64,000 nt of DNA, taken from assembly GCA_016935315.1 (NCBI GenBank), contig JAFGRD010000111.1, positions 1-64,000 on the forward strand, given 5' to 3'. Below the pieces are notes generated by a model, which ran no database searches, was not told the DNA's origin, and saw only the letters and a program-made list of their open reading frames with translations. Below, in pieces: positions 9,718 through 45,070 of this stretch. The translations under genes were made by a program, and so were the position numbers. How positions within the stretch are numbered: position 1 is the stretch's first letter; every line of letters starts with the position of its first letter. This DNA comes from Pirellulales bacterium. Its GTDB lineage: Bacteria; Planctomycetota; Planctomycetia; Pirellulales; Thermoguttaceae.

Positions 9718-9827
9718 GAGGTCTCCTCGGGAAAGGCGTGTGCCGGCGTATATTCTGGCTGGCGTGCAACGCCCACCAGCGTACGCCTCATTATCGCACG
9801 GTCGGGGCGCGCGATTCAAGTCGGCGG

Positions 9828-11303
9828 CTACGTCTCGGACCAATACCGTTCGGTGATGATCTTCTCTTCGGTAAAGAAGCGGATCGCCGCCTTGCCCTGA
9901 CCCTTCGTGTCGGCAAACAACGAGCTGCGCATGCCGCCGAACGGGAGCGAGGCCACCGGGGCGGGAATGCCCACGTTGACGCCGATCATGCCGGCCGCGG
10001 TTCGGAGCTTGAACTGCCGGGCGTAGTGGCCGTTTTGCGTGTAGATCGACGCCCCGTTGCCGTACGGGTGGTTGTTGATGATCGCGATCGCCTCGTCGAG
10101 CGACTCGGCCTTGAGAATCACCACGACCGGGCCGAAGATTTCCGTCTGGTGGATTTTCATGCCGGGCTGCACGTCGGTGAAGACGGTGGGGCCGAGGAAG
10201 TGGCCCTGCCGGCAGCCGGGCACGACCAACTCGCGGCCGTCCAACGCCAGCGTGGCCCCTTCGTCAATGCCCGCTTGGATCATCTCGAGTATGAACTGCT
10301 TCGACCGGGCGGAAATCACCGGGCCCATTACCATCGGCTCGTCGGCCACGGCCGGGTCGAGCGGGTCGGCCACCGGCACGCGCCGCGACGCCTCGACGAA
10401 CCGTTTGCAGACCTCGTGATAGGTCGCCTCGCCCACGCCCACAATGGCCGACGAGGCCATGCAGCGCTGGCCGGCGCAGCCGTAGCAGGAGGTGATCATA
10501 TTGCGGATCACTTCGTCCATCTTGGCGTCGGGCATGGCGACCAGGTGGTTCTTGGCGCTGCCGAGGGCCTGGAACCGCTTGTTGGTCTCGGCGCAGCGAG
10601 CGGCCACGATGCGGCAGACGCGCGACGTGCCCACGAAGGAAATCCCTCGCAGATCGGGGTGCTCGAGCAAACGCTCCGCCGCTCGGCGGTCACCGTGGAC
10701 CAGGTTGAACACGCCCGGCGGGAAGCCGGCTTCGTGGATCAGCCCCGACACGCGGTGCACGCTCAAGGGGACCTGCTCCGAGGGCTTCACCACGTAGGTG
10801 TTGCCGGCGGCCAGGGCATAGGGGAAAAACCAGAAGGGGACCATCAGCGGGAAGTTGAACGGGGCGATCATGCCGAAGGGGCCGATGGGCAGGCGGAGCA
10901 CCTCGCCGTCGATGCCCGCCGCCGCGCCGATCAGCTTGTCGCCTTGTTGCAGGACGGACATACCGCAGGCCACCTCGGTGTTTTCCAGGGCCCGTTTGAC
11001 CTCGGCCCGGGAATCGGCCAGCGATTTGCCATTCTCCTCGGTGATCTGCCGCGTGAGCACCTCCGCGTTCGCCCGCAACAGCTCGGCGAAGCGAAACAGC
11101 AGCTCACAGCGCCCGGAGACCGGCGTGTCGCTCCACCGCGGAAACGCGTCCCGGGCCGCCGCCAGGGCGCGATCGGTCTCGGCCGCGGTGGACAGCGGCA
11201 CCCGGGCAAGGATCTCGCCGGTGGCGGGGTTCTCCACGTCCAGCGCGCCGTGGCTGTCGGCGTCGGTCCATTGGCCGGCGATGTAGTTCTTCAAGGGGTC
11301 CAT
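9828..11303 (-). CDS. mmsA: methylmalonate-semialdehyde dehydrogenase (CoA-acylating) family
   Basis: A 491-aa aldehyde dehydrogenase. The ATG at 11303 has GAGGAAG upstream. Features include the N-terminal YIAGQWTDADSHGALDVENPATGE, the NAD-binding GISFVGTSRVCR, and the catalytic Cys in GCAGQRCM (about residue 281). LGSAKNH replaces the usual general-base Glu motif, which is diagnostic of the CoA-dependent MmsA/IolA branch. The family converts methylmalonate or malonate semialdehyde to propionyl- or acetyl-CoA in valine or myo-inositol catabolism. No valine or inositol operon is present here, so the physiological substrate is open. The neighbouring sugar epimerases make an inositol-like route plausible but unproven. 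Confidence 0.88.
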   Translation of the reverse strand: MDPLKNYIAGQWTDADSHGALDVENPATGEILARVPLSTAAETDRALAAARDAFPRWSDTPVSGRCELLFRFAELLRANAEVLTRQITEENGKSLADSRAEVKRALENTEVACGMSVLQQGDKLIGAAAGIDGEVLRLPIGPFGMIAPFNFPLMVPFWFFPYALAAGNTYVVKPSEQVPLSVHRVSGLIHEAGFPPGVFNLVHGDRRAAERLLEHPDLRGISFVGTSRVCRIVAARCAETNKRFQALGSAKNHLVAMPDAKMDEVIRNMITSCYGCAGQRCMASSAIVGVGEATYHEVCKRFVEASRRVPVADPLDPAVADEPMVMGPVISARSKQFILEMIQAGIDEGATLALDGRELVVPGCRQGHFLGPTVFTDVQPGMKIHQTEIFGPVVVILKAESLDEAIAIINNHPYGNGASIYTQNGHYARQFKLRTAAGMIGVNVGIPAPVASLPFGGMRSSLFADTKGQGKAAIRFFTEEKIITERYWSET

Positions 11304-21180: not shown

Positions 21181-21634
21181 CCGCCAAAAACCTGGCCAGG
21201 CTAAGTCTCACGACAAACGAGCAAGGGAAGTAGAAATGAAAGGAGACGCAGCGGAATCGCGTGGCAAAGGCAACGGCCGCGTGTGTCGATAGCCTGTCGA
21301 TAGGCTGTCGGCCGGCTTGAGTTTATCAACAGGCCTGCCCATGGCCGACGAAAAAACCGTTTAACAGACAAGCGGCCGCCCCGAGACGATCAGGATATCA
21401 ACACCCTGTCGACAGCCGAGGCGTTGAGACAACCCACGTTCCCGTGCCGAGTTACGATTTATTTGCTTCGACAATCGACGTTTTGCCGCGGGCTCTGATA
21501 CTGTTACTTGTTTAAGAGAGTTCTATAAGAAACTAAGAAGCCTATGGACTACCTGCGGTTCACGAGGTGGGCAAACAGGTGGCCTCCTTTTCTCAGAACA
21601 ACGTAGTAAGAACGTAGAAAGGCAGTGTCGATCG
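21181..21634. other. candidate chromosomal origin (oriC) between dnaA and dnaN
   Basis: This 454-bp gene-free interval is the AT-richest part of the region, especially 21450-21540 (gatttatttgcttcgac, ttaagagagttctataagaaac). It holds DnaA-box-like 9-mers: ttatcaaca at 21323-21331 (one change from TTATCCACA) and atatcaaca at 21395-21403. A cluster of the iteron tgtcgatag/ctgtcg occurs at 21284-21292, 21294-21303 and 21305-21310, plus ctgtcgacag near 21406. No perfect consensus box is present. Location in a dnaA-dnaN-gyrB cluster is the strongest argument, and the dnaN promoter must also lie here. Confidence 0.6.
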
Positions 21635-22756
21635 ATGAAACTCCAATGCGAGCGTGAAAAGCTCTTACACGCCTTCCAAACGGCTGCTAGCGTGGCTCCC
21701 GCCCGAAGCACCAAACCGATCCTGCAGAACGTCAAACTCGAAGCTACCGAGGCCGGCGCTACGGTGATGGGCACCGACCTGGAGATCAGCATCCGGATCG
21801 AAGTGCCCGGGTTCGAAATCTCGGCTCCCGGCACGATCGTGTTGCCGATATCCCGATTCAGCTCGATTTTGCGCGAGAGCAGCGACGCGAAGCTGAGTAT
21901 CCAAAGCGATGGACGGAGCATCACGGTCCGCGGCCAGCAAAGCGAGTTCCATTTTCCGTCGGAAAACCCGGATGAGTTTCCGACGGTACCAGTGTTCGAG
22001 GCGGAAAAGTACCACGAGTTGCCGGCGAGGTTCTTCCGCGAACTGGTGCGCCGTACGGTCTTTGCCACGGAAACCGAGAGTGGTCGCTATGCCTTGGGCG
22101 GCGTCTTGCTGGAGCTGACGGCCAAGGGAATCACGGGCGTGGCCACCGACGGGCGGCGGCTGGCCAGGCAGGAAGGTCCCGCCAAGTCGGTCGGTGGGCA
22201 CGAGACGGGCGACACCATGACGATTGTCCCGGTGCGAGCCATGCAACTGATCGAGCGGGCCCTGGCCGACAACGAGGGAGACATCCAACTGACCGCCGGC
22301 CCCAATGACGTGCGGATCAAGAGCGGCCGGGCCACGATCAACTCCCAATTGGTCGAGGGCCGCTACCCGAAGTGGCAAGACGTTTTCCCCCGCCGGGAAG
22401 ATATGATCAAAGTCGAACTGGCGGTGGGGCCTTTTCACGCGGCGGTGCGGCAGGCCGCAATCGTCACCAGTGCGGAACGGCGCGGCGTCGATTTCACGTT
22501 CGGCGAAGGCAAGGTCGTCCTGGCCGGCCACGGGGCGGAGATGGGGGAATCGCATGTCGAGATGCCGATAGCCTACGATGGAGAACCGGTCGCCATCACG
22601 CTGGATCCCCGATACGTAGCCGATTTTCTCCGCGTGTTGGATCCCGAACAGACTTTCACGATGGAGTTGCGTAGCGCGGAAAGCGCGGGGGTCTGCACGA
22701 CCGAAGACGGATATGGCTACGTGATCATGCCCCTGGCTCGCGACCAGAAGCCTTAG
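21635..22756 (+). CDS. dnaN: DNA polymerase III beta subunit (sliding clamp)
   Basis: A 373-aa clamp protein that rings DNA as a dimer and tethers DNA polymerase III. Start MKLQCEREKLLHAFQTAASVAPARSTKPIL is typical of the family, as are the three repeats, the domain-2 start (YHELPARFFRELVRRTVFATETESGRYALGG) and the C-terminal YGYVIMPLA that forms part of the protein-binding pocket. Length is normal. It lies downstream of dnaA across the candidate origin and 55 bp before the DUF721 gene, with which it is probably co-transcribed. Confidence 0.97.
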   Translation: MKLQCEREKLLHAFQTAASVAPARSTKPILQNVKLEATEAGATVMGTDLEISIRIEVPGFEISAPGTIVLPISRFSSILRESSDAKLSIQSDGRSITVRGQQSEFHFPSENPDEFPTVPVFEAEKYHELPARFFRELVRRTVFATETESGRYALGGVLLELTAKGITGVATDGRRLARQEGPAKSVGGHETGDTMTIVPVRAMQLIERALADNEGDIQLTAGPNDVRIKSGRATINSQLVEGRYPKWQDVFPRREDMIKVELAVGPFHAAVRQAAIVTSAERRGVDFTFGEGKVVLAGHGAEMGESHVEMPIAYDGEPVAITLDPRYVADFLRVLDPEQTFTMELRSAESAGVCTTEDGYGYVIMPLARDQKP

Positions 22757-22811
22757 GACTTACCAGCGCCCGGCTCGTAGCTTCGCGAGTCCGCAAGAGG
22801 AAGGGAACTTC

Positions 22812-25705
<2,894 letters not shown>

Positions 25706-31291: not shown

Positions 31292-34200
31292 ATGAAACCT
31301 CGCCGCCACGGTGGCCGGCTTGCTTGCAGGTGGAGTTCGAATCTCCCAGGCGAGAGAATCTTGCCGCCGAGGCGACGATTGACGCTGGAACCGCTGGAAG
31401 ACCGCCGGCTGCTCAGTGCCGGGCCGCTGCCGGAGATCCACGGGGCAAAGTGGCACGACTTCGACCGCGACGGCCGCTGGGACGACGGCGAGCCGGGCCT
31501 GCCGGGCTGGACGATCTACCTCGATCTGGACCGCAACGGCCGGTTCGACGAGGACGAGCCGGCCACCGTCACCGACGCCGACGGACGCTACGCCTTCACC
31601 GGGCTGGCCCCCGGGAGCTATACGGTGGCCGAGGTCTTCCGCGACGGCTGGCAGCAGACCTATCCCGGCGGGGGCGCCGTGCCGGCCGACAAATCGCAGC
31701 TTGCGAAACCCGGCACCACCGGTTCGACCGCACCGATCTACCTGACCTCGGCGTCGGTCGACGTCCCCGACCGTAAAGAGCTGTTGCCGAAGACGAACGC
31801 TTCGGGGCCGTTGATCGGGATGCAGGAGTTCCGGGCCGATCCTCGCTTTGCGGGCATCGACGGGAGCGGATGGGCCACGGTGATTATCGACACGGGCATG
31901 GCGCTGGACCACCCCGCCTTCGGACCCGACGACAACGGCGACGGCGTCGCCGACCGGATCGTCTACCAGTGGGACTTCGCCGAGAACGACGCCGACGCCG
32001 GCGACGTCCACGGCCACGGCTCGAACGTGGCGAGCATCGCGGCTTCGCAAGACGCGAGGTATCCGGGCATGGCCCCCGGCGCGAATATCATCGCGCTGAA
32101 GGTTTTCGACGATTCGGGCGAGGGCGAGTTCGCCGACGTGGAACGCGCGTTGCAGTGGGTGGTGGCCAACGCGGCGGCCTATCGGATCGCCAGCGTGAAC
32201 ATGTCGCTGGGCGACGACGAGAACCACGGCGGCCCCCAGACGCTCTACGGCATCGACGACGAACTGGCGGCCCTGGCGGCAATGAACGTGATCGTGGTGT
32301 CCGCGGCCGGCAACGATTTCTTTCCGCAGGGTAGCGTGTCCGGCGTGAGCTACCCGGCGGCCGACCCCCACAGCCTCGCGGTTGGAGCGGTCTACGATTC
32401 CGACATCGGCACGGCCAGCTATGCCAGCGGCGCGGAGGCCTTTTCGACGGGCGCCGACCGCATCGCGCCCTTCTCCCAGCGCCACCCGACGCTGACCAGT
32501 GTCTTCGCCCCTGGGGCATCGATCACCGGGGCATGGCTCGTGCCGGGCATCTACAGCGTCATGCACGGCACCAGCCAGGCATCGCCCCACGTGGCGGGGA
32601 TTGCCGTGCTGGCCCAGCAACTGGCCGTGCGGGAAATGGGACGGCCGTTGACGCCCGGCGAGTTCGCCGCCTTGTTGCGGCAAACGGGCGTGGTCGTTTT
32701 CGACGGCGACGACGAAGACGACAACGTGACGAACACAGGCTTGGACTTTCCCCGCGTCGACATGCCCTCGTTGGCCGAAGGGATCCTCGAGCTGGCCAGG
32801 CTGGGACTGACGCATACGGTCGAAGTCGACGACGGCGAGGTGGCCGGGGAAGTGAACTTCGGCAATCGCGACGCGTCGCTGCCGGCCGACGTGACCGGGC
32901 GCTGGATCTTCTACAACAACTCGAGCTTCGACGCCTACGGCCCGGGGCCGGGACCGAGCGACGACCGGGCCGTCGCCGACGACAAGCGGGCCTTGCTGCC
33001 CGGCGAAACGGCCACGTTTGCCAACTATACCAGCTACCCGCGCGGGATCAACGGCGTGATGGTCGACGTGGCCGGTCTGGCCGGCACGCCGACCGTCGCC
33101 GACTTTGTGTGGAAGGTAGGCAACGACGACGACCCCGACGGCTTTCGCGACGCCGCGCAACCGGTGAGCATCACCGTGCGACCCAACGCCGGATTGGACG
33201 GCTCGGATCGCGTGACGATGATTTGGGAGGACTACGCCGTCAGGGGGCAGTGGCTGCAGGTGACCGTGCTGCCCACCGAGCGGACGGGCCTGGCCGAGGC
33301 CGACGTCTTCTATTTCGGCAACGCCGCCGGGGAATCGGGCGACTCGGCGACCGACGCCCGGGTCAGCGCCACCGATTTGCTCCTGGCCCGCAACAATCCG
33401 CGAACCTTCCTCGACCCGGCGCCGGTCGGTTTTCCCTACGACTACAACCGCGACGGCCGGGTCAACGCCACCGACGTGCTGCTGGCGCGAAACAACGCGA
33501 CCCATTTTCTCGATGCACTGAAGCTGATCACGGCCCCGCCCTCGTCCCGAAAGCTCATCACGACGCCGGACCCTTCCCTGAAGCCGATCACGATTCCCGC
33601 CTGGGCCGAGAAGGCGATTGCCGCGAGCGGTCTCCCGCAGGCCAACGCGGCCGCAAGCCGCCGGATCGGCCCCGAACCGGCAGAAGAGGAGCCGATGGCT
33701 TACGCTCAGGGCGAGATCATCGTCAGGCTGAAGGAGACCGTCTCGCCGCAGGACCTGCGGAAACAGACGTACCGGCAGCGGAAGGCGAGCCACGCCGACA
33801 TTCTGTGCCGCTTGGAAGCACAATACGGGCTCTGCGGCGCCACGCCGGTGTTCGGCAGCCTGCACACACAAATGGCGGCGAAGAACCTGACGCTCGCCCA
33901 AGGGTACGCCGAGACGGAATCGCAACTCCCGGAGGAGAAGCAGCCGCCCGACGGCCGGCCAGTCGATCTGTTTCCGATCTACGTCGTCCGCACACCACAG
34001 GACGTGATGGCCGCCTGTGCCCTGCTCCGGCAAGATCCCGACGTCGCGTATGCCGAGCCCAACTACCTCCGCCAGACGTTCGACGCGGCCTTGCCGAACG
34101 ACTATTTCGTCAGCGACGGCGGCCAGTGGCGGCAGGGAAGCTGGGGGCAGGCGTACGCCGACATGTGGGGTTTGCAGCGAATCGAGGCCCCCGAGGCCTG

Positions 34201-37200
34201 GCAGGCGCTCTCCGGCTCGCCGCAAGACGCGGGAAGCGGCATCGTCGTGGCGGTGCTCGATACGGGCGTGTACTACTACCACGAAGACCTCCGGGACAGT
34301 CTCTGGATCAACGAGAGCACGCTGCCCGGCAAAAGCGAAATCCCGGAAAACGGCATCGACGACGACGGCAACGGCTACGTCGACGACTACATCGGCTACG
34401 ACTTCAGCGGCGACCAGTCGGTGCAGCATTCGGCCGACGTGCAGGCCGACGCCGATCCCATGGACCAAATCGGCCACGGGACGCACTGCGCGGGGACGAT
34501 TGCCGCGGCGGCCGACAACGCGGTCGGCATCGCGGGCGTGGCGCCGGGGGCCCGGATCATGGTCTTGAAGACCTTTCCCAACGCCTTCGACAGCGTCTCG
34601 GCCGAGGCGATCTACTACGCGGCCAACCAAGGGGCCGACGTGCTGAGCAACTCGTGGGGCGGCCCGGGCGAGAGCCACCTTCTGGCCGACGCATTCGACT
34701 ATGCTCACGATATGGGCTGCGTTTCGGTGGCGGCTGCCGGCAACGACGACTTCGACGCCCAGTATACGTCGCCGGCCAATCTCGACAGCGTGATTGCCGT
34801 AGCCGCGTCGACGCCGGACGACCGGAAGGCCGACTTCTCCAACTACGGACTGGCGGTGGACCTCTCGGCCCCCGGCGGCGGCTACGCCGATGAATTGGGA
34901 AGCGGAGCGACCGACCAGTACAACATCCTTTCGACCATGCCCGATGTCTCCACACTGGCGCTTCAGTATCCCGAGCTGAAGGTCTCCGACCAGCCGGACT
35001 ACTGGCGTCTGGGCGGGACGTCGATGGCATGTCCTCACGTGGCCGGGGCCGCGGCCGTGCTGATCAGCAGCGACGACGCCCTGAGGCAGAATCCCGACGA
35101 GGTCCGCGCGCGGCTGATGGCCGGCGCCGATCCGATCGACGCGGACAATCCGGGGCTCGAAGGCCGGCTGGGGACCGGGCGGGTGAACGTCGCGGGCGCG
35201 CTCCGGCAAACCGAGCCGGCGCCGCTGCTGCGCATCGTGGCGCTGCAGACCTCCGAGGTGGTCGTCGACCGGCCCGGCCCGGTCGTGGTCGGCGTGAGGA
35301 ACTTCTGGCAAGACACCTCGCAGGGCGTGACGGCGACGCTCGTCTCCGAGGACCCGCGGGCGGTGGTCGATCCGCTGCATGCCGTGGCCGACCTGGGCGA
35401 TCTCTCGCGGGGCGAAACGAAGACCAACGCCGCGGACCCTTTCCTCGTCCACTTCGACGAGTCCATCCCTTACGGCGACGTGATCCGCTTCCGCCTGGAA
35501 GTCGCCCACGGGGGCACGCCGGTCCAGCGGCTGCCGTTGACGATGACCGTCCCCTTCTTTAGCGATCGGTCGGCCGCGAGCCGGCTTCCGCTTGACGACG
35601 TTCTTCCGGTGTCCGCGGCCATGCAGGACTACGACGGAGACGGTTTCAGCGACGTCTACTACGGCGGCTACAGCAGCGGAGAGCTTTACCGAAATCGCGC
35701 GGACGGCTCCTTCGAGAACGTCACCGACGTCGCGGGCGTGGGCGGCATGGTCGACCCCAACCAGCAGCTCTTCTTCGACCTCGACAACGACGGCGATCAG
35801 GATCTGCTGGTCAACCACGGCAGCATGTACGCGCCGCGGAACAACCTGTTTTTGAACCGTGGCGACGGGACGTTCGACGATATCAGCGACCCCGGCGGCG
35901 TCCGGCTGGAGGACGCGTTCACGGTCAACCTGCTGGCGATCGACGCCAACGGGGACCGATGGACCGACGTCTACACGGGCGGCCATCTGCTGCTCGGCCA
36001 GGGCGATCGGACCTTTGTGGCGGTCGAGGCGGAGACGGTCGGACTGCCCCGCCTGCGCGGCGATTTCACCCGGCAAATCGTCTCGTTCGATTACGACAAC
36101 GACACCGATCTGGACCTGTTGATCCAGTGCAACCTGTACCGCAACAACGGCGACGGGACGTTTTCGCACATCGACGCGGCGCTGGAGATTGCGGGCCGTC
36201 ACGGCACGGCGGACCTCTACGGCGCCGCGGCCGGCGATTACGACAACGACGGGTATCTGGACCTGTTCCTCAGCGCGCTGAGCAGCGAAGACCCTCGCCG
36301 GCTCTACGGCGGGCTGCTGCGGAACAACGGCGACGGCACGTTTGCCGACGTGACGGACGCCGCCGGCGAGCTGGCCGAGGGCATTTACGCCCATTGGTGC
36401 GGAACCGATTTCTTCGACTACGACAACGACGGGGACCTGGACCTGTACGTGTCCAACCAGGGCGGGGTGACCACGGCGAATCAGCTCTACGAAAACCACG
36501 GCGACGGCACGTTCGGTCGCGTCACGGAGATCGCGTTTCCCGAGCAGGTTCGGCCCGGCTTGGGGGCCGCCTGCATCGGCGATTACAACGTCGACGGCGC
36601 CTTGGACATCTACGCCCCTTCGGGCAGAGGCTCCGGAGCGCTGCTGCAGAATCGCATCGGGCAGCAGAACCACTGGATCACGATCCGGCTGACCGGGACC
36701 ACCAGCGGCCGGGACGCCGTCGGGGCCAAGGTCTATCTGCGATCCGCCGGCCGCACACAGCTCCGCCAGGTACACACCTCGGCCGTGCAGACCCAACCGC
36801 TGCACTTCGGCCTGGGATCAGACGGGCTGATCGAGGAAATCGAGATCCACTGGCCCAGCGGCCTGGTTCAGACGCTCGACGGCGTCGAGGCCGACCGGTT
36901 GCTGGAAATCACCGAGCCGGCCGGCCATCTGCCCCGCATCGCGAGCATCCAGATCGAAGGGTCCCAAGCGACCGTGGGGCTGCCGGGCGACCTGGTCGTG
37001 ATCCGCGGCAGCAACTTCGGGGCTGCGCAGGCAGCCGTCCACGGGTCCGTGGAGTTCGCCGTTGGGCTCGTGGCGCATGTCACCTATTGGTCGAATACCG
37101 AGATTCGCTGTCTCGTGCCCGACAAAGTCGAGGAAGGCAACCTTCACGTTGTGACCGACGCTGGCAGAAGTCGGGGCGTCTGCTTCCGGCTGCTGACGAT

Positions 37201-40200
37201 CCCCGCCGCCCCCTCCGATCTGCGACTGGAGATCGTCGCCTCGGCCGGGATCCGGCTTCACTGGACCGACCGCGCCGACAATGAGGACGGCTTCGAGATC
37301 GAGCGGCGGATCGACGACGGCGAGTTCACGCGGATCGCCATGGTGGGCAGCGACGAGGTCTCCTTTCTCGATGCGGAGCCGGTTCCCGAGCATGTGAACG
37401 CCTACCGCGTGCGCGCGTGCAATCGGGCGGGCTGTTCCGCCGACACGACCGTCGCTTCGCTTTACGTGGATCGTCCGCCCGCCGCGCCGAGCGATCTCCG
37501 CGCCGTGTTCAACGGGCTTCACCTGGAGTTTGCCTGGAACGACCACGCGCACAACGAGCGCCGATTCGATCTGTATCAAAACGTGCAGGGCGATCCGGCG
37601 GGCGTTTGGTTGTGCGCCACCTTGGCCCCCAACCGCGAGACGTATGCCTACGCGTATCAGTCGTTGCTGCCCGGACGGACGTACGAGTACCGGATTGCGG
37701 CCGTCAACGATTTCGGCCAGTCCGAATTCTCCCCGACGATTGCCGTGACCATGCCGGAGCTGGCGCCGCCGAACGGCCTGGAGGCGCTCGCCGTCTCGTC
37801 GTCGGAGATCGCCCTGCGATGGGACTACGGCTCGTGGATCGGGCAAGGTTTTCTCGTCGAGATCAGCACCGACGGAGCCGTCTTCGCTTCGGGAGTCTCG
37901 GTGCCCTTTGCCCGCACGGCACACACGCTGGGCGGTCTCAACGCCGATGCGCAATACGTTTTCCGGATCAGCGCCTACTCGTACGGCGAGTCCTCGGGCT
38001 TCACCTATGCAGAGCCGGTGGTCACGTTGCCCAACTACGACTACAGCGTCGCCCTGGGGCAGCACCGGATCACCGACGACTGGTCGGGGGCGAGCTACCG
38101 GGGCAACGGCGACGGGCGGCTCGGCGCGGGCGAACGGGTCGAGCTCCGCGTCGAGCTGACCAACACGGGCTCCGCGCCCCTCGACAATCTGTCGGTCGAG
38201 CTGACTTTGGTCGACGGCCATGCCGCGGGCGTCGAAATCCTCCAGGGCGGCCCGATCACGTTTCCCGTCGGGTTGCTGCCCGGCGAAACGGGCTGCGGCC
38301 AGGAGAGTTTCGTGATCGAGGCCCCGCGCCAGGCCACGGACGCCTCGACCACGGCGATCCTGCTGGTGAACGTGTTCGTCGACGGACTCCCGGTGCGCCA
38401 CGAGCCGTTGCCGCTGTCGATCGCCGAGGCCGGCGCCGTCTCCGGTCCGAGCGATTTCCGGATCAGCGGAATCGACACCGACACGGGTTACCGCTCGCTG
38501 GGGCCCTGTCTGAGCATCGACGCCGGCGGCAACATCTATGCCCTCTGGCAAGGTTTTCAAGCTGGGCCCCACGGCGACATCTTCTTCAACCGGTCGCGCG
38601 ATCGGGGCGTCACCTGGAACCGGGTCGATCTGCGGCTCGATACGGGCGATCCCCTCGGGGCGTCCCATTCGAGCAGCCCTTGCATCGCCTCCGACTCTTC
38701 CGGCCACGTCTACGCCGTCTGGGAAGACGATCGCAACGACCGCCGTGACGGCAACGGCGACATCTACTGCAATGTTTCGCACGACTACGGAGCCACCTGG
38801 CAAGCAGAAGCCTTCCGGCTGGACCTGGGCGACTCCCCGGGCAGCACCCGCTCCTATTCGCCCAGCCTTTGCGCCGACGAAGACGGCCACGTGTACGTCG
38901 TCTGGGGTGATGACCGCAACGGAGAGAGCGACATTTACTTCAACTACTCCCACGACCACGGTACTACCTGGCTGGCGGAACCGATTCGGCTGGACACCGG
39001 CGACGCACCGGGCGCACACGATTCGTACTACCCCGTTCTGCAGTGCGACGCCCGGGGAAGCGTCTACGTGGCATGGTCGGATCGCCGAAACGCCGACGTC
39101 GAGCTCAACGCCGACATCTATTTCACCCACTCGCGCGATTACGGCGCTACCTGGCAGACGGAACCCGTCCGGCTGAACGTCGGCGCAGACCCCGGCACGT
39201 CCTGGTCGAGGTATCCCAGCCTCAGTTGCGACGACGAGGGGCACGTCTACGCGGCGTGGCAAGAATATCGCCACGACCCCACGCGGGCCTGCGCCGACGT
39301 CTACGGCAACTTCTCCGCCGATTACGGCGCCACCTGGCGGTCGGACGACGTGCGTCTGAACGCTGGCGACGCCCCGGGCGCGTCCGTCTCGCAGCACGTC
39401 CAGATCGGCTCGGACCGCATCGGACACGTCTACGTGCTCTGGAGCGACTCCCGCCACGGCAAGGGGGAGATCTACTTCAACGCCTCCGACGACTACGGCG
39501 CCACCTGGCCGACGGACGATGTGCGCATCAGCCACACCGACTCGCCCGGCAGCTACACTCTCTACTCTCCGACCCTCACTTGCGACGATCAGGGCAACGT
39601 CTACGTGGCGTGGCAGGATTACCGCAACGCCTTTGCCGACGGAGAGGCGGACGTCTATTTCAATCATTCGCCGGACTACGGCGCCACGTGGCCAAGTAGC
39701 GACGTCCGGCTCGACGCCACGGACGCCCCGGGAGAATCCGGCTCCTTTGCTCCCGTTTCGGTCTGCGACGGACGGGGCAGCGTCTACGTGGCCTGGACCG
39801 ACAACCGCAACGGACCGAACGGCATCTTTTTCGTGTCGGCCCTGCCCGACGAGTCGCCGCAACTCGACCCGATCGCGGACCAGGTCGTGCTGGCCGGCCG
39901 ACGGCTGGAGTTCGAGGTAACGGCCACCGACGCCAAGGGCATGCCGCTGGGACTCTTCGTCGATCTGCGGGAATTGCCCGAGGACCAGCAAGCACGCCTG
40001 GCAGACGCCCTGTTGTCCGAACCGGTCTTCGACGCGGCGACGGGCAAGACGACCAGCACGTTTCGCTGGCTGCCCGACGACTCGGCGGCCGGAACGTATG
40101 CGCCCGTGGCGGTCGTGGCCACCAATCCGGTCACGGGTCGTTGCTGGTATCAGGAAATCGCGATGACGGTCCTCGTCGACGAGCCGTCCGTCGTGGGCCG

Positions 40201-41014
40201 TTGGGTGTTTTACGGCTATTCGGCCTTCGACGGCCGCGACGCGGCCGCGGATGCGAGGGACGACGCGGCGCTGGCCACCGACAAGCGGGCGCTGTTGCCC
40301 GGCCAGACCGCCGGCTTCGCCAACTACACCAGCTACAGCCGCGGCATCAACGGGATCATGATCGACCTGGCCGGCCTGCCGGAGAACGCGTTGCCGGCGG
40401 CGTCCGATTTCCAGTTCCGCGTGGGCAACGACGAGAACCCGGCGAACTGGATCGCCGCGGCGAATCCGGCTGAAGTCGTTTTGCGCCCCGGGGCCGGCGT
40501 GGGCGGGTCCGACCGGGTGACGATCACCTGGCCGGATGGCGCGATTCGCGGCCAATGGCTGCAAGTGACCGTGCTCGGCACGGCCAACACGGGACTGGCC
40601 GAATCGGACGTATTCTACTTCGGCAACGCGGTGGCCGACGCGGGCAATTCGACGATCAACGCCAACGTCAACGTCGTCGACATGCTGTTGGCGCGAAACA
40701 ACTCGCGAACGTTCCTCGACCCCGCCGCCGTCGATTGCCCCTACGACTACAATCGCGATGCCCGCGTCAACGCCACCGACGTGCTCCTGGCGCGAAACAA
40801 CCAGACGCACTTTCTCAACGCCTTGAAGCTGATCACGGTACCCGGCGGTAAGGTTGCCCAAGGGGAGTCGGGGCCTGCCGGGGTCTCGCTCCCGAAACGG
40901 CCCGGTCGGTCCGCGTGGGAGTATGAGTTCGAGCCACGGGAGGCCCGGCAGCAGCGCGGCGGGCGGCAACGCCGTGCGGAAATTGACATGTGTGCGGAAT
41001 TTGTTATCTTGTAG
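31292..41014 (+). CDS. giant surface protein with two subtilisin domains, VCBS/UnbV, Fn3, Asp-box repeats and dockerins
   Basis: A 3240-aa secreted protein; ATG 31292 follows AAGGAG. Order of parts: export tag LEPLEDRRLLS (residues 32-42); SdrD-B-like domain (about 45-120); peptidase S8 domain 1 with Asp200, His242 (GHGSNVAS) and Ser428 (GTSQASP); discoidin-like segment; dockerin-like pair RVSATDLLLARNN / RVNATDVLLARNN (about 690-750); fervidolysin-type propeptide. Then S8 domain 2 with Asp990, His1062 (GHGTHCAG) and Ser1244 (GTSMACP); FG-GAP/VCBS repeats; ASPIC/UnbV domain; IPT/TIG; three Fn3 domains; eight Asp-box repeats (about 2390-2850); cadherin-like domain; a second copy of the segment-plus-dockerin; and a C-terminal SAWEYE motif. 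Both catalytic triads look intact. Its likely role is an extracellular or wall-anchored protease/adhesin. Fusion of two S8 domains in one chain is odd. Confidence 0.85.
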   Translation: MKPRRHGGRLACRWSSNLPGERILPPRRRLTLEPLEDRRLLSAGPLPEIHGAKWHDFDRDGRWDDGEPGLPGWTIYLDLDRNGRFDEDEPATVTDADGRYAFTGLAPGSYTVAEVFRDGWQQTYPGGGAVPADKSQLAKPGTTGSTAPIYLTSASVDVPDRKELLPKTNASGPLIGMQEFRADPRFAGIDGSGWATVIIDTGMALDHPAFGPDDNGDGVADRIVYQWDFAENDADAGDVHGHGSNVASIAASQDARYPGMAPGANIIALKVFDDSGEGEFADVERALQWVVANAAAYRIASVNMSLGDDENHGGPQTLYGIDDELAALAAMNVIVVSAAGNDFFPQGSVSGVSYPAADPHSLAVGAVYDSDIGTASYASGAEAFSTGADRIAPFSQRHPTLTSVFAPGASITGAWLVPGIYSVMHGTSQASPHVAGIAVLAQQLAVREMGRPLTPGEFAALLRQTGVVVFDGDDEDDNVTNTGLDFPRVDMPSLAEGILELARLGLTHTVEVDDGEVAGEVNFGNRDASLPADVTGRWIFYNNSSFDAYGPGPGPSDDRAVADDKRALLPGETATFANYTSYPRGINGVMVDVAGLAGTPTVADFVWKVGNDDDPDGFRDAAQPVSITVRPNAGLDGSDRVTMIWEDYAVRGQWLQVTVLPTERTGLAEADVFYFGNAAGESGDSATDARVSATDLLLARNNPRTFLDPAPVGFPYDYNRDGRVNATDVLLARNNATHFLDALKLITAPPSSRKLITTPDPSLKPITIPAWAEKAIAASGLPQANAAASRRIGPEPAEEEPMAYAQGEIIVRLKETVSPQDLRKQTYRQRKASHADILCRLEAQYGLCGATPVFGSLHTQMAAKNLTLAQGYAETESQLPEEKQPPDGRPVDLFPIYVVRTPQDVMAACALLRQDPDVAYAEPNYLRQTFDAALPNDYFVSDGGQWRQGSWGQAYADMWGLQRIEAPEAWQALSGSPQDAGSGIVVAVLDTGVYYYHEDLRDSLWINESTLPGKSEIPENGIDDDGNGYVDDYIGYDFSGDQSVQHSADVQADADPMDQIGHGTHCAGTIAAAADNAVGIAGVAPGARIMVLKTFPNAFDSVSAEAIYYAANQGADVLSNSWGGPGESHLLADAFDYAHDMGCVSVAAAGNDDFDAQYTSPANLDSVIAVAASTPDDRKADFSNYGLAVDLSAPGGGYADELGSGATDQYNILSTMPDVSTLALQYPELKVSDQPDYWRLGGTSMACPHVAGAAAVLISSDDALRQNPDEVRARLMAGADPIDADNPGLEGRLGTGRVNVAGALRQTEPAPLLRIVALQTSEVVVDRPGPVVVGVRNFWQDTSQGVTATLVSEDPRAVVDPLHAVADLGDLSRGETKTNAADPFLVHFDESIPYGDVIRFRLEVAHGGTPVQRLPLTMTVPFFSDRSAASRLPLDDVLPVSAAMQDYDGDGFSDVYYGGYSSGELYRNRADGSFENVTDVAGVGGMVDPNQQLFFDLDNDGDQDLLVNHGSMYAPRNNLFLNRGDGTFDDISDPGGVRLEDAFTVNLLAIDANGDRWTDVYTGGHLLLGQGDRTFVAVEAETVGLPRLRGDFTRQIVSFDYDNDTDLDLLIQCNLYRNNGDGTFSHIDAALEIAGRHGTADLYGAAAGDYDNDGYLDLFLSALSSEDPRRLYGGLLRNNGDGTFADVTDAAGELAEGIYAHWCGTDFFDYDNDGDLDLYVSNQGGVTTANQLYENHGDGTFGRVTEIAFPEQVRPGLGAACIGDYNVDGALDIYAPSGRGSGALLQNRIGQQNHWITIRLTGTTSGRDAVGAKVYLRSAGRTQLRQVHTSAVQTQPLHFGLGSDGLIEEIEIHWPSGLVQTLDGVEADRLLEITEPAGHLPRIASIQIEGSQATVGLPGDLVVIRGSNFGAAQAAVHGSVEFAVGLVAHVTYWSNTEIRCLVPDKVEEGNLHVVTDAGRSRGVCFRLLTIPAAPSDLRLEIVASAGIRLHWTDRADNEDGFEIERRIDDGEFTRIAMVGSDEVSFLDAEPVPEHVNAYRVRACNRAGCSADTTVASLYVDRPPAAPSDLRAVFNGLHLEFAWNDHAHNERRFDLYQNVQGDPAGVWLCATLAPNRETYAYAYQSLLPGRTYEYRIAAVNDFGQSEFSPTIAVTMPELAPPNGLEALAVSSSEIALRWDYGSWIGQGFLVEISTDGAVFASGVSVPFARTAHTLGGLNADAQYVFRISAYSYGESSGFTYAEPVVTLPNYDYSVALGQHRITDDWSGASYRGNGDGRLGAGERVELRVELTNTGSAPLDNLSVELTLVDGHAAGVEILQGGPITFPVGLLPGETGCGQESFVIEAPRQATDASTTAILLVNVFVDGLPVRHEPLPLSIAEAGAVSGPSDFRISGIDTDTGYRSLGPCLSIDAGGNIYALWQGFQAGPHGDIFFNRSRDRGVTWNRVDLRLDTGDPLGASHSSSPCIASDSSGHVYAVWEDDRNDRRDGNGDIYCNVSHDYGATWQAEAFRLDLGDSPGSTRSYSPSLCADEDGHVYVVWGDDRNGESDIYFNYSHDHGTTWLAEPIRLDTGDAPGAHDSYYPVLQCDARGSVYVAWSDRRNADVELNADIYFTHSRDYGATWQTEPVRLNVGADPGTSWSRYPSLSCDDEGHVYAAWQEYRHDPTRACADVYGNFSADYGATWRSDDVRLNAGDAPGASVSQHVQIGSDRIGHVYVLWSDSRHGKGEIYFNASDDYGATWPTDDVRISHTDSPGSYTLYSPTLTCDDQGNVYVAWQDYRNAFADGEADVYFNHSPDYGATWPSSDVRLDATDAPGESGSFAPVSVCDGRGSVYVAWTDNRNGPNGIFFVSALPDESPQLDPIADQVVLAGRRLEFEVTATDAKGMPLGLFVDLRELPEDQQARLADALLSEPVFDAATGKTTSTFRWLPDDSAAGTYAPVAVVATNPVTGRCWYQEIAMTVLVDEPSVVGRWVFYGYSAFDGRDAAADARDDAALATDKRALLPGQTAGFANYTSYSRGINGIMIDLAGLPENALPAASDFQFRVGNDENPANWIAAANPAEVVLRPGAGVGGSDRVTITWPDGAIRGQWLQVTVLGTANTGLAESDVFYFGNAVADAGNSTINANVNVVDMLLARNNSRTFLDPAAVDCPYDYNRDARVNATDVLLARNNQTHFLNALKLITVPGGKVAQGESGPAGVSLPKRPGRSAWEYEFEPREARQQRGGRQRRAEIDMCAEFVIL
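38452..39840 (+). repeat. tandem Asp-box (sialidase-like) protein repeats
   Basis: Within the giant protein, about eight units of 50-60 residues repeat the plan G-[HNS]-V-Y-[AV]-x-W-x-[DE]-x-R-N, then DIYFN-S-DYGATW, then RLD-GDxPG. Seven carry the Asp-box core DxGxTW seen in sialidases and other beta-propellers. Units differ at the DNA level, so the array is old rather than recently expanded. It likely folds as one eight-bladed propeller or as two partial ones. Confidence 0.75.
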
Positions 41015-41080
41015 GTTGTCTTTTCAAGTGTTCGGCGGGGTCCGTCGTTTCCGCAATCCATCACAGGCAGGAGCGCGATC

Positions 41081-44000
41081 ATGCGGCAATTCAGCCCGTT
41101 GTTGCTTCGTTGGGAGGCCCTCTCGCGTCATTGCCGGGCGGGAAGGAGCCGCGCGGAACGGCAGCACGCGAATCGGCGGATTCGCGGGCGGGCCACCCGA
41201 CTGGAAGCCCTGGAGCAACGGGCCCTGTTGAGTCTGGGCGGCGTCGAGTTGCCGTCGGCGGCCGAGGTGTTGCGTCTGAAAGGGCTCGGCATGACGCTGG
41301 GGCCGGCGGTCGAAGACCAGGGCCTGTGGGTCGACTTCAACGCGGCCGACGGCCTGGACCCGGACGCGGAGGCCGACTTCAAGCTGACCAAGGCTTCCGC
41401 CGAGAAGATCGTCGGGCAGGTTTCCATCCCCGGCGCATGGCTGGAAGCCGTGGCCTTGGGCGACCTGGAGTTTAGCCGGCTGACCGTGCCCGGGTGTGGA
41501 TACACCAATGTCATCGGCGCGCCGCGGTTGCCGGTGCTGCGGAGCGTCCTGGCCGTCGCCGACGGGGCCGAGGTCACCGCGAAGGTCACCGGCGAGGCGC
41601 GCATGCTGTCGCTGATCGATGTGGGCATGCCGTTGCCGCTGGCGCCCGTGCAAGCGCCCGTGCCCAAGTTGCCCGGCGCCCTGGAGGCGGCGCCGCTGGA
41701 CCTGGACCAGGCGGCTTACGCCACGGATCGGCTCGGGCCGGAAACCAGCGTGCGGGTGGTGGAAGCGGGCGAGCTGGCGGGCCAGCGGCTGGTGATGCTC
41801 GAAGTGACCCCGATCGCCTACAACCCCGTGGCGCAGGCGGTCGGCATCTACGACACGCTGACCGTCAACGTCAGCATTCGGGGCGGCGAGAAGGACAGCC
41901 CCGTGCTCTCGGCGAGAGAAGACGCCTGGTTGGCGGGCGCGGCCGTCAACCACCTGCCCGAGAAGAGCCAGACCAAGGCCGGCGGCCGGTTGCTGATCGT
42001 CGCTCACAGCGACTTCTACGGAGACCTCGACACGTTTGTCGACCACAAGGAAGCCTTGGGCTGGACGGTGGACCTGTGCGGCACGGCGACCGCCGGCACG
42101 ACGGCCACGGCCATCCGCAGCTACATTCAGAACCGCTACAACAACGTCGGCCTCCGGCCCGACGCCGTGCTGCTGGTGGGCGATACGGATCGCATCCCGG
42201 CCTTCACCGGATCGGGAACCGGGACGCCGGCGACCGATCTCTACTACGGCTGCATGGGCACGGGCGACGATTGGTATCCCGAGTTTTCCGTGGGGCGTTT
42301 CAGCGTGGCCAATGCCGCGCAGCTAGCCGACGTGGTCGCCAAGACGATCGACTACGAGTCGTCGACCTACGGATCCTGGACCAGCCAGGCGGCGTTCCTG
42401 GCGGGCAACGACCACTACTCGCTCACCGAAGGCACGCACAACTGGGTGATCGGCAATCACCTCAACGGCGCGGGCTACACCAGCGACCGGCTCTACGAGG
42501 TCACTTACTCGGCGACCACGCAGGACGTCCGCGACGCGCTGAACAACGGCCGGGCGTGGGCCGTCTATTCGGGACACGGCTCCACGCGGTCGTGGGCGGA
42601 CGGGCCGGCCTTCGAGCAGAACGACGTGCGGAATCTCACCAACGGCGACATGGCGCCCTTCGTCAGCAGTTTCGCCTGCGTCACCGGCAGTTACACGATC
42701 GCAGAGTGTTTCATGGAGACCTGGCTGCGGGAACCCAACGGCGGGGCCGTGGTGGCCGTCGGCTCCAGCGTGAACAGTTGGTGGACCGAGGACGACATCC
42801 TCGAACGGAAGCTCTTCGACGCCATCTACGACGACGGCTACGCGGCCCACGGCGACGCCTGGCTGCGAGCGAAAGAGCTTTATCGCGGGTATTTCGGGGT
42901 CTCTGCCGACACCCGACGCTACTTTGAAATGTACAACCTCTTCGGCGACCCCACCGTGGCGCTGGTGGGACTCCGCGACGACGGCTACGAACCGAACGAT
43001 TCGCTCGCCGATGCGTATGATCTCAGCAGCCGAGAGGGCACCTGGCTGAGCAGCGTCGGCGGCATGGGGATCCAGCGGGACGACGACTGGTACGGGATCA
43101 GTGTCGCCTCCGACGCGCTGCGCCTCGTGGCGGAAGTGACGTTCAACGACGCCGACGGCAACGTCGACCTGGCCTTGTACGACGACTCGGGGACCTTGCT
43201 GCAGTCGTCCACCTCGCTGACCGACAGCGAGCGGATCGACTATGCCGTGCCGTCGGCAGGAACCTATTATCTGAGGGTCTATCACGGCAACCGGGGAAAC
43301 CTTTACGACCTCCGGTGGGACGGTCTGCAGCCGCAGATCGATCTGTTCGGCGCGGCGTTCGACCTGCCGGGTTCCGAGCAGACGGCGGCCGGCAGCACTC
43401 TCGACGTCGCGTTCCAGATCGGCAACGGCGAAGCGGACCCCGCCGGTTCTTTCGACGTCGACTTCTACTTCAGCACCGACAACGTGATCGCCTCGACGGA
43501 TTACCACTTGGGGACGTACCGCGTGGACGGCTTGAGTGGCAACAGCGCGACCGGCACACTGACGAAGCGCCTTGCCTTGCCGCCGGTCGGCGAGCCGCTC
43601 TACCACGGCGACGCCTGGTACTACGTCGGAATGATCGTGGATGCCGGCCACGAGATCTCGGAGACGGACGAGGGCAACAACCGGAGCACCGGTTCCGGCC
43701 TCGACTGGGAGAACCGGTACGTTTTCGACGACGCCTACGAACAAAACGACGGCCGGACCACGGCGTTCGACCTCAGCGGCTTCGAGGCCACGTGGCTCAG
43801 CGCGATCGACGGACCGGGCGCCCAGACCGACGACGACTGGTATCGCATCGACGTCAGTCCGGACGGCGGGCGGGTGATCGTCGACCTAACCTTCGTGCAC
43901 GATGCCGGCAACCTCGACGTGGCGCTGTACGACACAAACGGCGGCCTGCTGGCGGTCTCGCAGTCCGCCACCGACAACGAGCACGTCGAGGCGGTCGTGT

Positions 44001-45070
44001 TTGCCGTCGCGCCTTACTATCTGAAGGTCTTCGGCGAGGGTGCCGGCAACCGCTACGACCTGCTCTGGGAAGACGTCGCCGCCGAGCCCCTTTGGTGGGA
44101 TCAGCTCGGCGACGGCTACTGGGGCGAGATCGACCTCTGGTCGGGGCGGTCGCGCTGGGTCGATTCGGCCGGCCAGGCGACCTCCCGCTCGCCCAGTGAT
44201 TCCTTTACCGACGCCGTCGTCAGGACCGACGTGGTGACGGTCGGCGCCGACCGCTTCGCGCGCGACCTGACGGTTGAAAGCGGGACGCTGACGATGGTGC
44301 CCGGGATGAGCCTCCACCTCGCAGGCGACGCCGCGATGCTCGAGCCTGCCGAGTACGCCCACCAGTTGGGCGCCGCGACCGGTGGTCTCGTCGATGTTGC
44401 CGGCCGCGCCGCGCTGGCCGGCCGCCTGAGCCTGGCTGCCCACCAGAAGCTGCACGCGGCGCCGGCCAGCCTGCCGCAGTGGTACGGCTACGAAACGCGA
44501 ACGGTTCTCCGCGCCGGCGGGGGTGTCGTCGGTGCCTTCGATCACGAGCCGTTCGTGGGGGAGCACCTCGGCCACGGTGTCTTCCTGGCCGACCAGGGGC
44601 CGCACGGCCGGGGCGTGACCTACACGGCCACCACCGTCGAGGTGGATCTGTTCCAGGCGGCGCCCGGCGACGCCAACGGCGACGGCGCGGTCAACGGCAA
44701 GGACATCCAAGCGATCCTGGCGGCCAACAAGTTCGGCACCGCGGCACGGGCCACCTGGCTCGAAGGCGATTTCACGGGCAACGGCGTGGTCGACGGCAAC
44801 GACATTCAGGCGATCTTGGCGGCCAATCTGTTTGGCACCGGCCCGTACATCGCGCCGATTCCAAAACCAGCCGACAAGAGCCTTGGCAGCCGCACGACCT
44901 CGCCGGGCATGGCACAAGCCCACGACGCCGTCTTCGCACAGGCAGCCCCGAGGACCCAACGCAGTTCGGCGTGGGTCTACGAGCCCCTGCAGACTCGCGC
45001 GACGAAACGGACCTCGCCGAGGAGCCCGCTGGTCGCCGCGGCCACGGACCGCTTGCTGGAAACGTGTTGA
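41081..45070 (+). CDS. gingipain-type (C25) cysteine peptidase with PPC and dockerin domains
   Basis: A 1329-aa exported protease; ATG 41081 follows CAGGAG. The N-terminus carries LEALEQRALLS, a variant of the planctomycete export tag. A propeptide-like region is followed by the C25 caspase-like domain: LLIVAHSDFYGDL, AVLLVGDTDRIPAF, catalytic His499 in YSGHGS and Cys533 in SSFACVTG. An Ig-like region, two pre-peptidase C-terminal (PPC) domains with EPNDSLADAYDL and EQNDGRTTAFDL starts, and a CARDB-like domain come next. The dockerin pair GDANGDGAVNGKDIQAILAAN / GDFTGNGVVDGNDIQAILAAN follows, then a tail with SAWVYEPL. Gingipain-like enzymes cleave after Arg or Lys; specificity cannot be read here. 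It starts 66 bp after the giant subtilisin-like gene, so the two may be co-expressed. Confidence 0.85.
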   Translation: MRQFSPLLLRWEALSRHCRAGRSRAERQHANRRIRGRATRLEALEQRALLSLGGVELPSAAEVLRLKGLGMTLGPAVEDQGLWVDFNAADGLDPDAEADFKLTKASAEKIVGQVSIPGAWLEAVALGDLEFSRLTVPGCGYTNVIGAPRLPVLRSVLAVADGAEVTAKVTGEARMLSLIDVGMPLPLAPVQAPVPKLPGALEAAPLDLDQAAYATDRLGPETSVRVVEAGELAGQRLVMLEVTPIAYNPVAQAVGIYDTLTVNVSIRGGEKDSPVLSAREDAWLAGAAVNHLPEKSQTKAGGRLLIVAHSDFYGDLDTFVDHKEALGWTVDLCGTATAGTTATAIRSYIQNRYNNVGLRPDAVLLVGDTDRIPAFTGSGTGTPATDLYYGCMGTGDDWYPEFSVGRFSVANAAQLADVVAKTIDYESSTYGSWTSQAAFLAGNDHYSLTEGTHNWVIGNHLNGAGYTSDRLYEVTYSATTQDVRDALNNGRAWAVYSGHGSTRSWADGPAFEQNDVRNLTNGDMAPFVSSFACVTGSYTIAECFMETWLREPNGGAVVAVGSSVNSWWTEDDILERKLFDAIYDDGYAAHGDAWLRAKELYRGYFGVSADTRRYFEMYNLFGDPTVALVGLRDDGYEPNDSLADAYDLSSREGTWLSSVGGMGIQRDDDWYGISVASDALRLVAEVTFNDADGNVDLALYDDSGTLLQSSTSLTDSERIDYAVPSAGTYYLRVYHGNRGNLYDLRWDGLQPQIDLFGAAFDLPGSEQTAAGSTLDVAFQIGNGEADPAGSFDVDFYFSTDNVIASTDYHLGTYRVDGLSGNSATGTLTKRLALPPVGEPLYHGDAWYYVGMIVDAGHEISETDEGNNRSTGSGLDWENRYVFDDAYEQNDGRTTAFDLSGFEATWLSAIDGPGAQTDDDWYRIDVSPDGGRVIVDLTFVHDAGNLDVALYDTNGGLLAVSQSATDNEHVEAVVFAVAPYYLKVFGEGAGNRYDLLWEDVAAEPLWWDQLGDGYWGEIDLWSGRSRWVDSAGQATSRSPSDSFTDAVVRTDVVTVGADRFARDLTVESGTLTMVPGMSLHLAGDAAMLEPAEYAHQLGAATGGLVDVAGRAALAGRLSLAAHQKLHAAPASLPQWYGYETRTVLRAGGGVVGAFDHEPFVGEHLGHGVFLADQGPHGRGVTYTATTVEVDLFQAAPGDANGDGAVNGKDIQAILAANKFGTAARATWLEGDFTGNGVVDGNDIQAILAANLFGTGPYIAPIPKPADKSLGSRTTSPGMAQAHDAVFAQAAPRTQRSSAWVYEPLQTRATKRTSPRSPLVAAATDRLLETC

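What the first reader, a model, noticed from the sequence alone, without database searches (positions are those of the whole stretch)
31387..45069. Shared N-terminal LEPLExRxLLS and C-terminal SAWxYE tags on the two giant neighbours
Both 31292-41014 and 41081-45070 open with the export tag and both end with an [RS]SAWxYE segment followed by a basic tail. A matching pair of end tags suggests a dedicated secretion and sorting system with a C-terminal recognition signal.
Basis: partly seen in the sequence, partly recalled or inferred. Interest (0 to 1): 0.55.

Follow-up and report, generated by a model that had tools for sequence, protein, structure and literature searches.

The report
Two-ended tags on giant planctomycete proteins
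Dozens of giant exported-type proteins in this planctomycete carry, besides a known signal near their start, an apparently undescribed 30-odd-residue signal at their very end, possibly an address label that gets them out of the cell.

Summary
W-x-Y-E lies exactly 32 residues from the C-terminus in both window proteins. In 1.52 Mb read of this 7.1 Mb planctomycete genome it lies 28-42 residues from the end in 39 of 79 3'-complete ORFs with the N-terminal LEPR motif, plus window ORF A, against 0 of 530 complete ORFs without it. The fuller signal is bipartite: A/D-W-L-Y-E-F/L, a variable linker, then A-V-D-x-L-L-A at the end. No NCBIfam model matches, and Pfam gives only single-member noise. It was found in 8 of 119 genomes of the family, with about 50 matches in each of two. 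All 27 proteins picked by their upstream cassette alone have the W, although the linker is unalignable. All 12 scanned ORFs with 3 or more RTX nonapeptides carry LEPR or the tail. The tail weakly matches the end-cap of a repeat whose nearest solved folds are RTX domains. Best reading: an uncleaved C-terminal export signal of type-I/RTX style on LEPR proteins. No transporter or peptidase was shown to track it. Both window tails are divergent members.

The parts
31292..41014 (+). ORF A: giant LEPR protein with two S8 subtilase domains, FG-GAP/UnbV_ASPIC, fn3, BNR, two copies of a beta-domain plus dockerin
31385..31417 (+). N-terminal LEPR / Planc_extracel motif LEPLEDRRLLS
   Evidence: PF07595 25.6 bits, cut-off 25.5; coordinates
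32900..33499 (+). internal copy of the beta-domain plus dockerin cassette, without a recognised tail
   Evidence: motif coordinates
40181..40804 (+). C-terminal cassette of ORF A: about 150-aa beta-domain and dockerin, shared with paralogues
40916..41011 (+). C-terminal tail of ORF A: WEYEFE ... AEIDMCAEF (divergent member)
   Evidence: not found by a profile built without it
41081..45070 (+). ORF B: LEPR protein with C25 (gingipain-family) peptidase, PPC, CARDB, dockerin-like repeats
41201..41233 (+). N-terminal LEPR-type motif LEALEQRALLS
   Evidence: not in the NF012209 and PF07595 genome hit lists
44687..44836 (+). dockerin-like pair of ORF B
   Evidence: PF00404 17.4 bits, cut-off 22.9
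44918..44941 (+). AHDAVFAQ, an element like the HDAV/HDVV seen before the tail in several paralogues
   Evidence: judged by eye
44972..45067 (+). C-terminal tail of ORF B: WVYE ... AATDRLLE (divergent member)
   Evidence: one search hit comes from a profile that contains it; 3.7 bits when left out

Best explanation
The C-terminal end is a bipartite signal of about 32 residues (W-h-Y-E-F/L, variable linker, A-V-D-x-L-L-A) carried by LEPR proteins of one planctomycete family. SHOWN: enrichment on LEPR proteins, near-fixed distance from the C-terminus, attachment to several upstream contexts, conservation of W and its neighbours across an unalignable linker, recurrence in other genera. INFERRED: it is an uncleaved C-terminal export signal that works like the C-terminal signal of RTX proteins in type I secretion. 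An exporter would engage the tail first and pull the giant, in part Ca-binding, protein out; the LEPR segment would leave last and may anchor or be trimmed at the surface. The signal may have arisen from the end-cap of an RTX-like solenoid repeat and spread by duplication of C-terminal cassettes.
For: Enrichment 39/79 + ORF A vs 0/530. All 48 matches of a looser W motif in the last 65 residues of complete own-genome ORFs lie 30-40 residues from the end. 88 profile hits at E 0.01 (training rows included), 85 ending within 10 residues of the stop, no reversed decoy at that level. W followed by E, D or Q three residues on in 27/27 proteins chosen only by their upstream cassette, with linker identity 0.14. 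Terminal hDxhh in the last 20 residues also in 15/31 W-less LEPR proteins vs 4/530. In one group of four close paralogues, five printed pairs give tail pN/pS 0.014/0.40, 0.135/0.53, 0.129/0.30, 0.122/0.52, 0.142/0.41 with linkers at 0.35-0.39/0.34-0.77. No transmembrane segment in 76/76. LEPR starts seldom have a Sec-like hydrophobic core: 1% of 67 vs 21% of 524 other ORFs pass the threshold, though medians are alike. All 12 scanned ORFs (11 proteins) with 3 or more RTX nonapeptides are LEPR- or tail-bearing; 5/79 LEPR vs 0/573 others at a stricter pattern, among them a 12,346-aa LEPR protein with 54 that ends in the tail. A repeat domain directly before the tail in C30, G003 and G010 has CyaA RTX, serralysins and RsaA among its best solved matches (Z 7.5 at best); its end-cap aligns with the tail (hhalign E 3.8e-4, probability 36%). 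A Vibrio giant with LEPR-XLL start and RTX/serralysin end is described (PMC10868602, passages). HlyA's signal is a C-terminal stretch with an amphipathic helix (PMC8870123, passages); the tail is modelled as two short helices at low confidence.
Against: LEPR proteins of eight relatives do without this tail, and 111 of 119 family genomes gave no tail match. TIGR01842 homologues are below cut-off in all genomes and do not separate tailed from untailed. Only a minority of tailed proteins have recognisable RTX repeats. In 7 of the 12 printed paralogue pairs the tail as a whole is not constrained (pN 0.47-0.61, pS 0.54-0.83; poor alignment or true divergence). Helix moments are only modestly above shuffles, and the second model shows strands, not helices, in the tail. 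Z 7.5 is within the range the tool calls common. No NCBIfam model matches; that the library holds type-I signal models is recalled, not checked. [quoted passage not shown] Both window tails are weak members.
Confidence: 0.4

Rival explanations
1. The tail is a post-export docking or retention signal: LEPR proteins leave by whatever route other planctomycetes use, and in this family the tail then binds one surface receptor that holds them at the outer membrane or in a matrix.
For: LEPR proteins of eight relatives lack the tail; the tail is patchy and expanded in two genomes; it often follows a dockerin, a binding module.
Against: No receptor candidate found. Cohesins do not fit well: one match in the window's genome, inside a LEPR protein, and none in tailed G003, G004, G010, G259.
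Confidence: 0.28
2. The tail is only the folded end-cap of a C-terminal domain (solenoid or dockerin) and has no recognition role.
For: Register and profile similarity to the end-cap of the repeat domain.
Against: It also ends proteins without that repeat, after several kinds of upstream sequence judged by eye; an unalignable linker separates it from the dockerin (mean pairwise identity 0.14); no packing is predicted, the tail having pLDDT about 40-58.
Confidence: 0.15
3. Hitch-hiking: the tail is conserved only because the C-terminal cassettes were duplicated recently.
For: 27 proteins share beta-domain, dockerin and tail; in 7 of 12 printed pairs the tail as a whole is not constrained.
Against: The linkers of these 27 have drifted to 0.14 identity while W stands in 27/27; in one group of four close paralogues the tail is constrained and the linker is not; the tail also sits on other contexts and in other genera.
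Confidence: 0.07
4. A C-terminal anchor of the PEP-CTERM/exosortase or GlyGly-CTERM kind.
For: Exosortase genes are present in the window's genome and in 4 of 6 other tailed genomes.
Against: No hydrophobic segment in 76/76 tails, no NCBIfam match; exosortase also in 10 of 12 untailed genomes and not found in tailed G003 and G010, both incomplete.
Confidence: 0.02

Closest known systems
LEPR-XLL / Planc_extracel N-terminal export motif (NF012209, PF07595; RRLxxExLExRxLLA)
   Different: No C-terminal partner is mentioned in the section and passages read; the tail described here was found in only part of one family.
C-terminal secretion signal of RTX proteins (type I secretion)
   Same: Extreme C-terminus, no Sec-type start, giant substrates, RTX repeats in some of the proteins, RTX-like solenoid directly upstream in some.
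   Different: The tail has a recognisable consensus across unrelated substrates; no exporter was tied to it; no NCBIfam match.
PEP-CTERM / exosortase
   Same: Short C-terminal homology region shared by many different proteins of one genome.
   Different: No transmembrane helix; exosortase does not separate tailed from untailed genomes.
T9SS C-terminal domain
   Same: C-terminal sorting of exported proteins; ORF B's peptidase is of the C25 family and matches the PorU models weakly.
   Different: Tail is about 32 residues (the T9SS domain is about 80 residues, recalled; its NCBIfam model has 72 positions); no SprA match in 16 genomes, though no control rang either.

Membership tests
LEPR / Planc_extracel proteins | N-terminal LExLExRxLL motif | tested here: met
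   ORF A 25.6 bits vs cut-off 25.5. ORF B by consensus only; it is in neither genome hit list.
PEP-CTERM | hydrophobic transmembrane segment near the C-terminus | tested here: not met
   highest 19-residue hydropathy mean 1.13; 0 of 76 tails above 1.6; no NCBIfam match in 37 tails
PEP-CTERM | co-occurrence with exosortase | tested here: inconclusive
   5 of 7 tailed, 10 of 12 untailed genomes; the tailed ones without it, G003 and G010, are 89% and 68% complete
[quoted passage not shown]
   85 of 88 profile hits end within 10 residues of the stop
RTX type I secretion substrate | GGxGxDxhx nonapeptide repeats upstream of the signal | tested here: inconclusive
   3 or more copies in 5 of 79 LEPR proteins vs 0 of 573 others; ORF A and B are not in the list, so have fewer than 3
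RTX type I secretion substrate | amphipathic helix in the signal | tested here: inconclusive
   two helices at pLDDT 47-58 but strands; moments modestly above shuffles
RTX type I secretion substrate | dedicated ABC exporter, HlyD and TolC | tested here: inconclusive
   TIGR01842 homologues below cut-off in 18 of 19 genomes; their neighbourhoods could not be fetched; HlyD and TolC not searched
RTX beta-roll fold of the repeat before some tails | structural match to RTX domains | tested here: inconclusive
   CyaA RTX Z 7.5, rmsd 5.3, 191 aligned; Foldseek best E 0.03
T9SS cargo | T9SS C-terminal domain and SprA in the genome | tested here: inconclusive
   no NCBIfam match in tails; a Por_Secre_tail match in ORF B (24 bits, cut-off 23) lies inside the protein at residues 688-737, over the PPC domain; SprA_N 0 of 16 genomes but no control rang
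Cellulosome-type dockerin protein | dockerin with cohesin scaffold in the genome | tested here: inconclusive
   dockerin in ORF A 23.0 vs cut-off 22.9; a single cohesin match in the genome, in a LEPR protein

The most novel reading that the evidence does not exclude
LEPR at the start and the WhYE...AVDxLLA tail at the end are the two ends of one export route for giant planctomycete surface proteins, an RTX/type-I-like system whose C-terminal signal evolved from the end-cap of an RTX-like solenoid and became a portable password, lineage-specific and expanded to about 50 proteins in each of two genomes.
Probability: 0.3. Interest if true: 0.8.

Novelty: new variant of a known kind. Interest (0 to 1): 0.6.

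Why it matters
How planctomycetes export their giant LEPR proteins is, in the passages read, described only as a presumed novel N-terminal signal (PMC8567305). A second, C-terminal signal and the link to RTX repeats turn this into a testable question with a named candidate route, and give a profile that picks out about 50 presumed surface or secreted proteins in each of two genomes.

Tried and rejected
Basic tail as the shared feature: rejected, median net charge -2. Exosortase as partner: does not discriminate. Type I ABC as a tracking partner: not discriminating. Cohesin scaffold: poorly supported. T9SS: inconclusive, no control rang. Known family of the tail: none in NCBIfam, five Pfam families with one member each, none in PHROGs, one hit at E 0.66 among PDB sequences. 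The cassette model gave no PDB match at E 0.001, but its dockerin part was modelled poorly. The count wrongly placed ORF A among non-LEPR; corrected. In one search the eight 'non-LEPR' ORFs with the tag were six LEPR proteins missed by the regex and two cut at the 5' end. A first thought that G010 is a named Pirellulales MAG, from one equal contig length, was tested and dropped: the sequences differ.

Rows dropped or chosen: 9 of 88 LEPR ORFs cut at the 3' end; three LEPR hits judged spurious left out only; A1 holds 36 of the 48 tails plus ORF B, A2 35 of the 76 tails plus ORF B, chosen by me; 46 of 54 dockerin loci outside G015 were examined; only the 12 closest pairs were printed, and seven of them show no constraint over the whole tail.

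Literature: searches in an open-licence library listed no paper on this tail; subscription papers are not covered. Seen: PMC8567305 passages and section 19; PMC1569441, PMC10868602 and PMC8870123 passages; all others only as search listings.
Full report
What was claimed and what is there. Two neighbouring giant ORFs were said to share an N-terminal LEPLExRxLLS tag and a C-terminal [RS]SAWxYE tag. Both are present at the stated places, the N-terminal one of ORF B as LEALEQRALLS. ORF A carries two subtilase domains, FG-GAP/UnbV_ASPIC, fn3, BNR and dockerin; ORF B is a C25 peptidase with PPC, CARDB and a dockerin-like pair. The W of W-x-Y-E lies 32 residues from the end in both.

Genome-wide test. 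The window lies in a 7.10 Mb, 172-contig genome, 95% complete. NF012209 gives 52 and PF07595 62 matches at E up to 10. I fetched stretches around them, 1.52 Mb with the window (stitched), and read the ends. Of 88 LEPR ORFs, ORF B included and ORF A by oversight not, 79 are complete at the 3' end. W-x-Y-E stands 28-42 residues from the end in 39 of the 79, plus ORF A, in 0 of 530 complete non-LEPR ORFs, and in 5 of 12510 other ORFs, of which one is a chance case. An earlier, looser count gave 36/64 against 8/661, p 1.4e-35, the eight being missed LEPR proteins or cut ORFs.

The fuller signal. Aligning 37 tails, then 36 from five genera (W and a terminal D invariant), shows A/D-W-L-Y-E-F/L, a variable stretch, and A-V-D-x-L-L-A, often ending in Y-W-P in relatives. 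The terminal part also marks W-less LEPR proteins: 15/31 against 4/530 in the last 20 residues. Own-genome search with the first profile: 52 matches at E 0.01, the profile's own rows among them. Over the fetched ORFs the second profile gives 88 hits at E 0.01, and no reversed decoy reaches that. 55 have an intact 5' end and 49 of these carry LEPR by a loose pattern. The six others are two G015 ORFs, one apparently broken gene with a LEPR ORF upstream, two odd ORFs (one beside a CRISPR-like array) and a 101-aa ORF that is probably chance. The two window tails score poorly when left out of the profile.

Spread. In the family 8 of 119 genomes and 8 of 40 genera have a match at E 0.001: 46 in the window's genome, 49 in G015, 3 in G003, 2 in G010, 1 each in four others. 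In a draw of the order 4 of 296, all of this family; in a draw of the phylum only the window's genome of 392. In these scans only a part of the candidates per genome was scored (59, 23 and 17 at most), so counts are lower bounds. G015 is, by identical sequence, the MAG JABMRB01, labelled Candidatus Nealsonbacteria bin.20 and probably mislabelled; G021 of the same family is JARKPK01, a Thermoguttaceae MAG. Eighteen 3'-complete LEPR proteins, 17 from eight relatives without a tail match and one from G003, were read: one has a W-type end, and that is the repeat end-cap of G014. Dockerins of the same type elsewhere end the protein at once in 17 of 46 loci, and 8 of 46, all with planctomycete titles, show a terminal hDxhh motif; none has the W.

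Constraint. 27 proteins were chosen by their upstream beta-domain only. Their mean pairwise identity is 0.61 in that domain, 0.76 in the dockerin, 0.14 in the linker, 0.62 over WxYE and the next residue, 0.14 in the middle of the tail and 0.34 in its terminal part. W is present in 27/27, Y two further on in 23 and E three further on in 23. In one group of four close paralogues the tail shows few amino-acid changes for its synonymous ones, while the linker does not; in seven other printed pairs the tail as a whole is not constrained.

Origin. A repeat of about 47 residues, DS-x-GDD...GFYNRAKxFExVxAYAxAGGxDxAxLY, directly precedes the tail in C30:90557, G003 and G010; in untagged proteins it ends in a cap such as WFYGFEYVRA...AVDYLLRLDGNW. 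Cap and tail profiles align at E 3.8e-4, probability 36%, which is suggestive only. AlphaFold models the repeats confidently as a strand-rich array that I read as a solenoid, from only 8 sequences; the best solved matches are RTX domains (Foldseek E 0.03; VIA-align Z 7.5), within what the tool calls common.

RTX link. Canonical GGxGxDxh nonapeptides, three or more per protein, occur in 5 of 79 LEPR and 0 of 573 other ORFs. With a slightly wider pattern over 20,190 ORFs of the loci scanned, all 12 hits, pieces of 11 proteins, are LEPR or tail proteins, including the 12,346-aa LEPR protein that ends in the tail. The sample was drawn around LEPR and tail hits, so only their neighbours serve as control. 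Outside planctomycetes a Vibrio giant with LEPR-XLL start and RTX/serralysin end is on record (PMC10868602, passage).

Mechanism. The proteins mostly lack a Sec-type hydrophobic start, many are huge, some are RTX, and they share an end signal without a membrane segment. A type-I-like C-terminal export signal explains most of this; surface docking after export is the main rival, because relatives do without the tail. Neither is proven, and no partner gene was found among the few families tested (exporter neighbourhoods not readable).

Noticed in passing
window 31292-41014: ORF A looks like a fusion of two LEPR-type proteases: two S8 domains (catalytic motifs near 31880/32015/32567 and 34250/34475/35015) with an internal tail-less beta-domain plus dockerin cassette between them.
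   Followed up: partly
L144 (G000:C21, about 49.4 kb onward): A long CRISPR-like array runs up to and into a 195-aa ORF that ends in a dockerin piece and the tail; possibly a misjoin or a broken gene.
   Followed up: no
L057 (G000:C51:95416-101529): A LEPR-bearing ORF without tail is followed on the same strand by a tail-bearing ORF without LEPR, as if one gene were broken.
   Followed up: no
window 5176-10263 (-): 1696-aa ORF with matches to the middle domain of hydrazine synthase alpha, Laminin_G_3 and weaker PD40 and cytochrome-type models.
   Followed up: no
window 21428-25702: dnaN and gyrB side by side, so the two giant protease genes may lie near the replication origin.
   Followed up: no
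L060, L072, L073, L078, L081 (own-genome LEPR proteins without the W): A second end type, about R-R-x-P-x-A-x-E-I-D-x-L-L-A, ends several W-less LEPR proteins and resembles the terminal half of the tail.
   Followed up: partly
Genome contigs record JABMRB01 (G015): A MAG deposited as Candidatus Nealsonbacteria bin.20 that the genome search places in the window's planctomycete family.
   Followed up: partly
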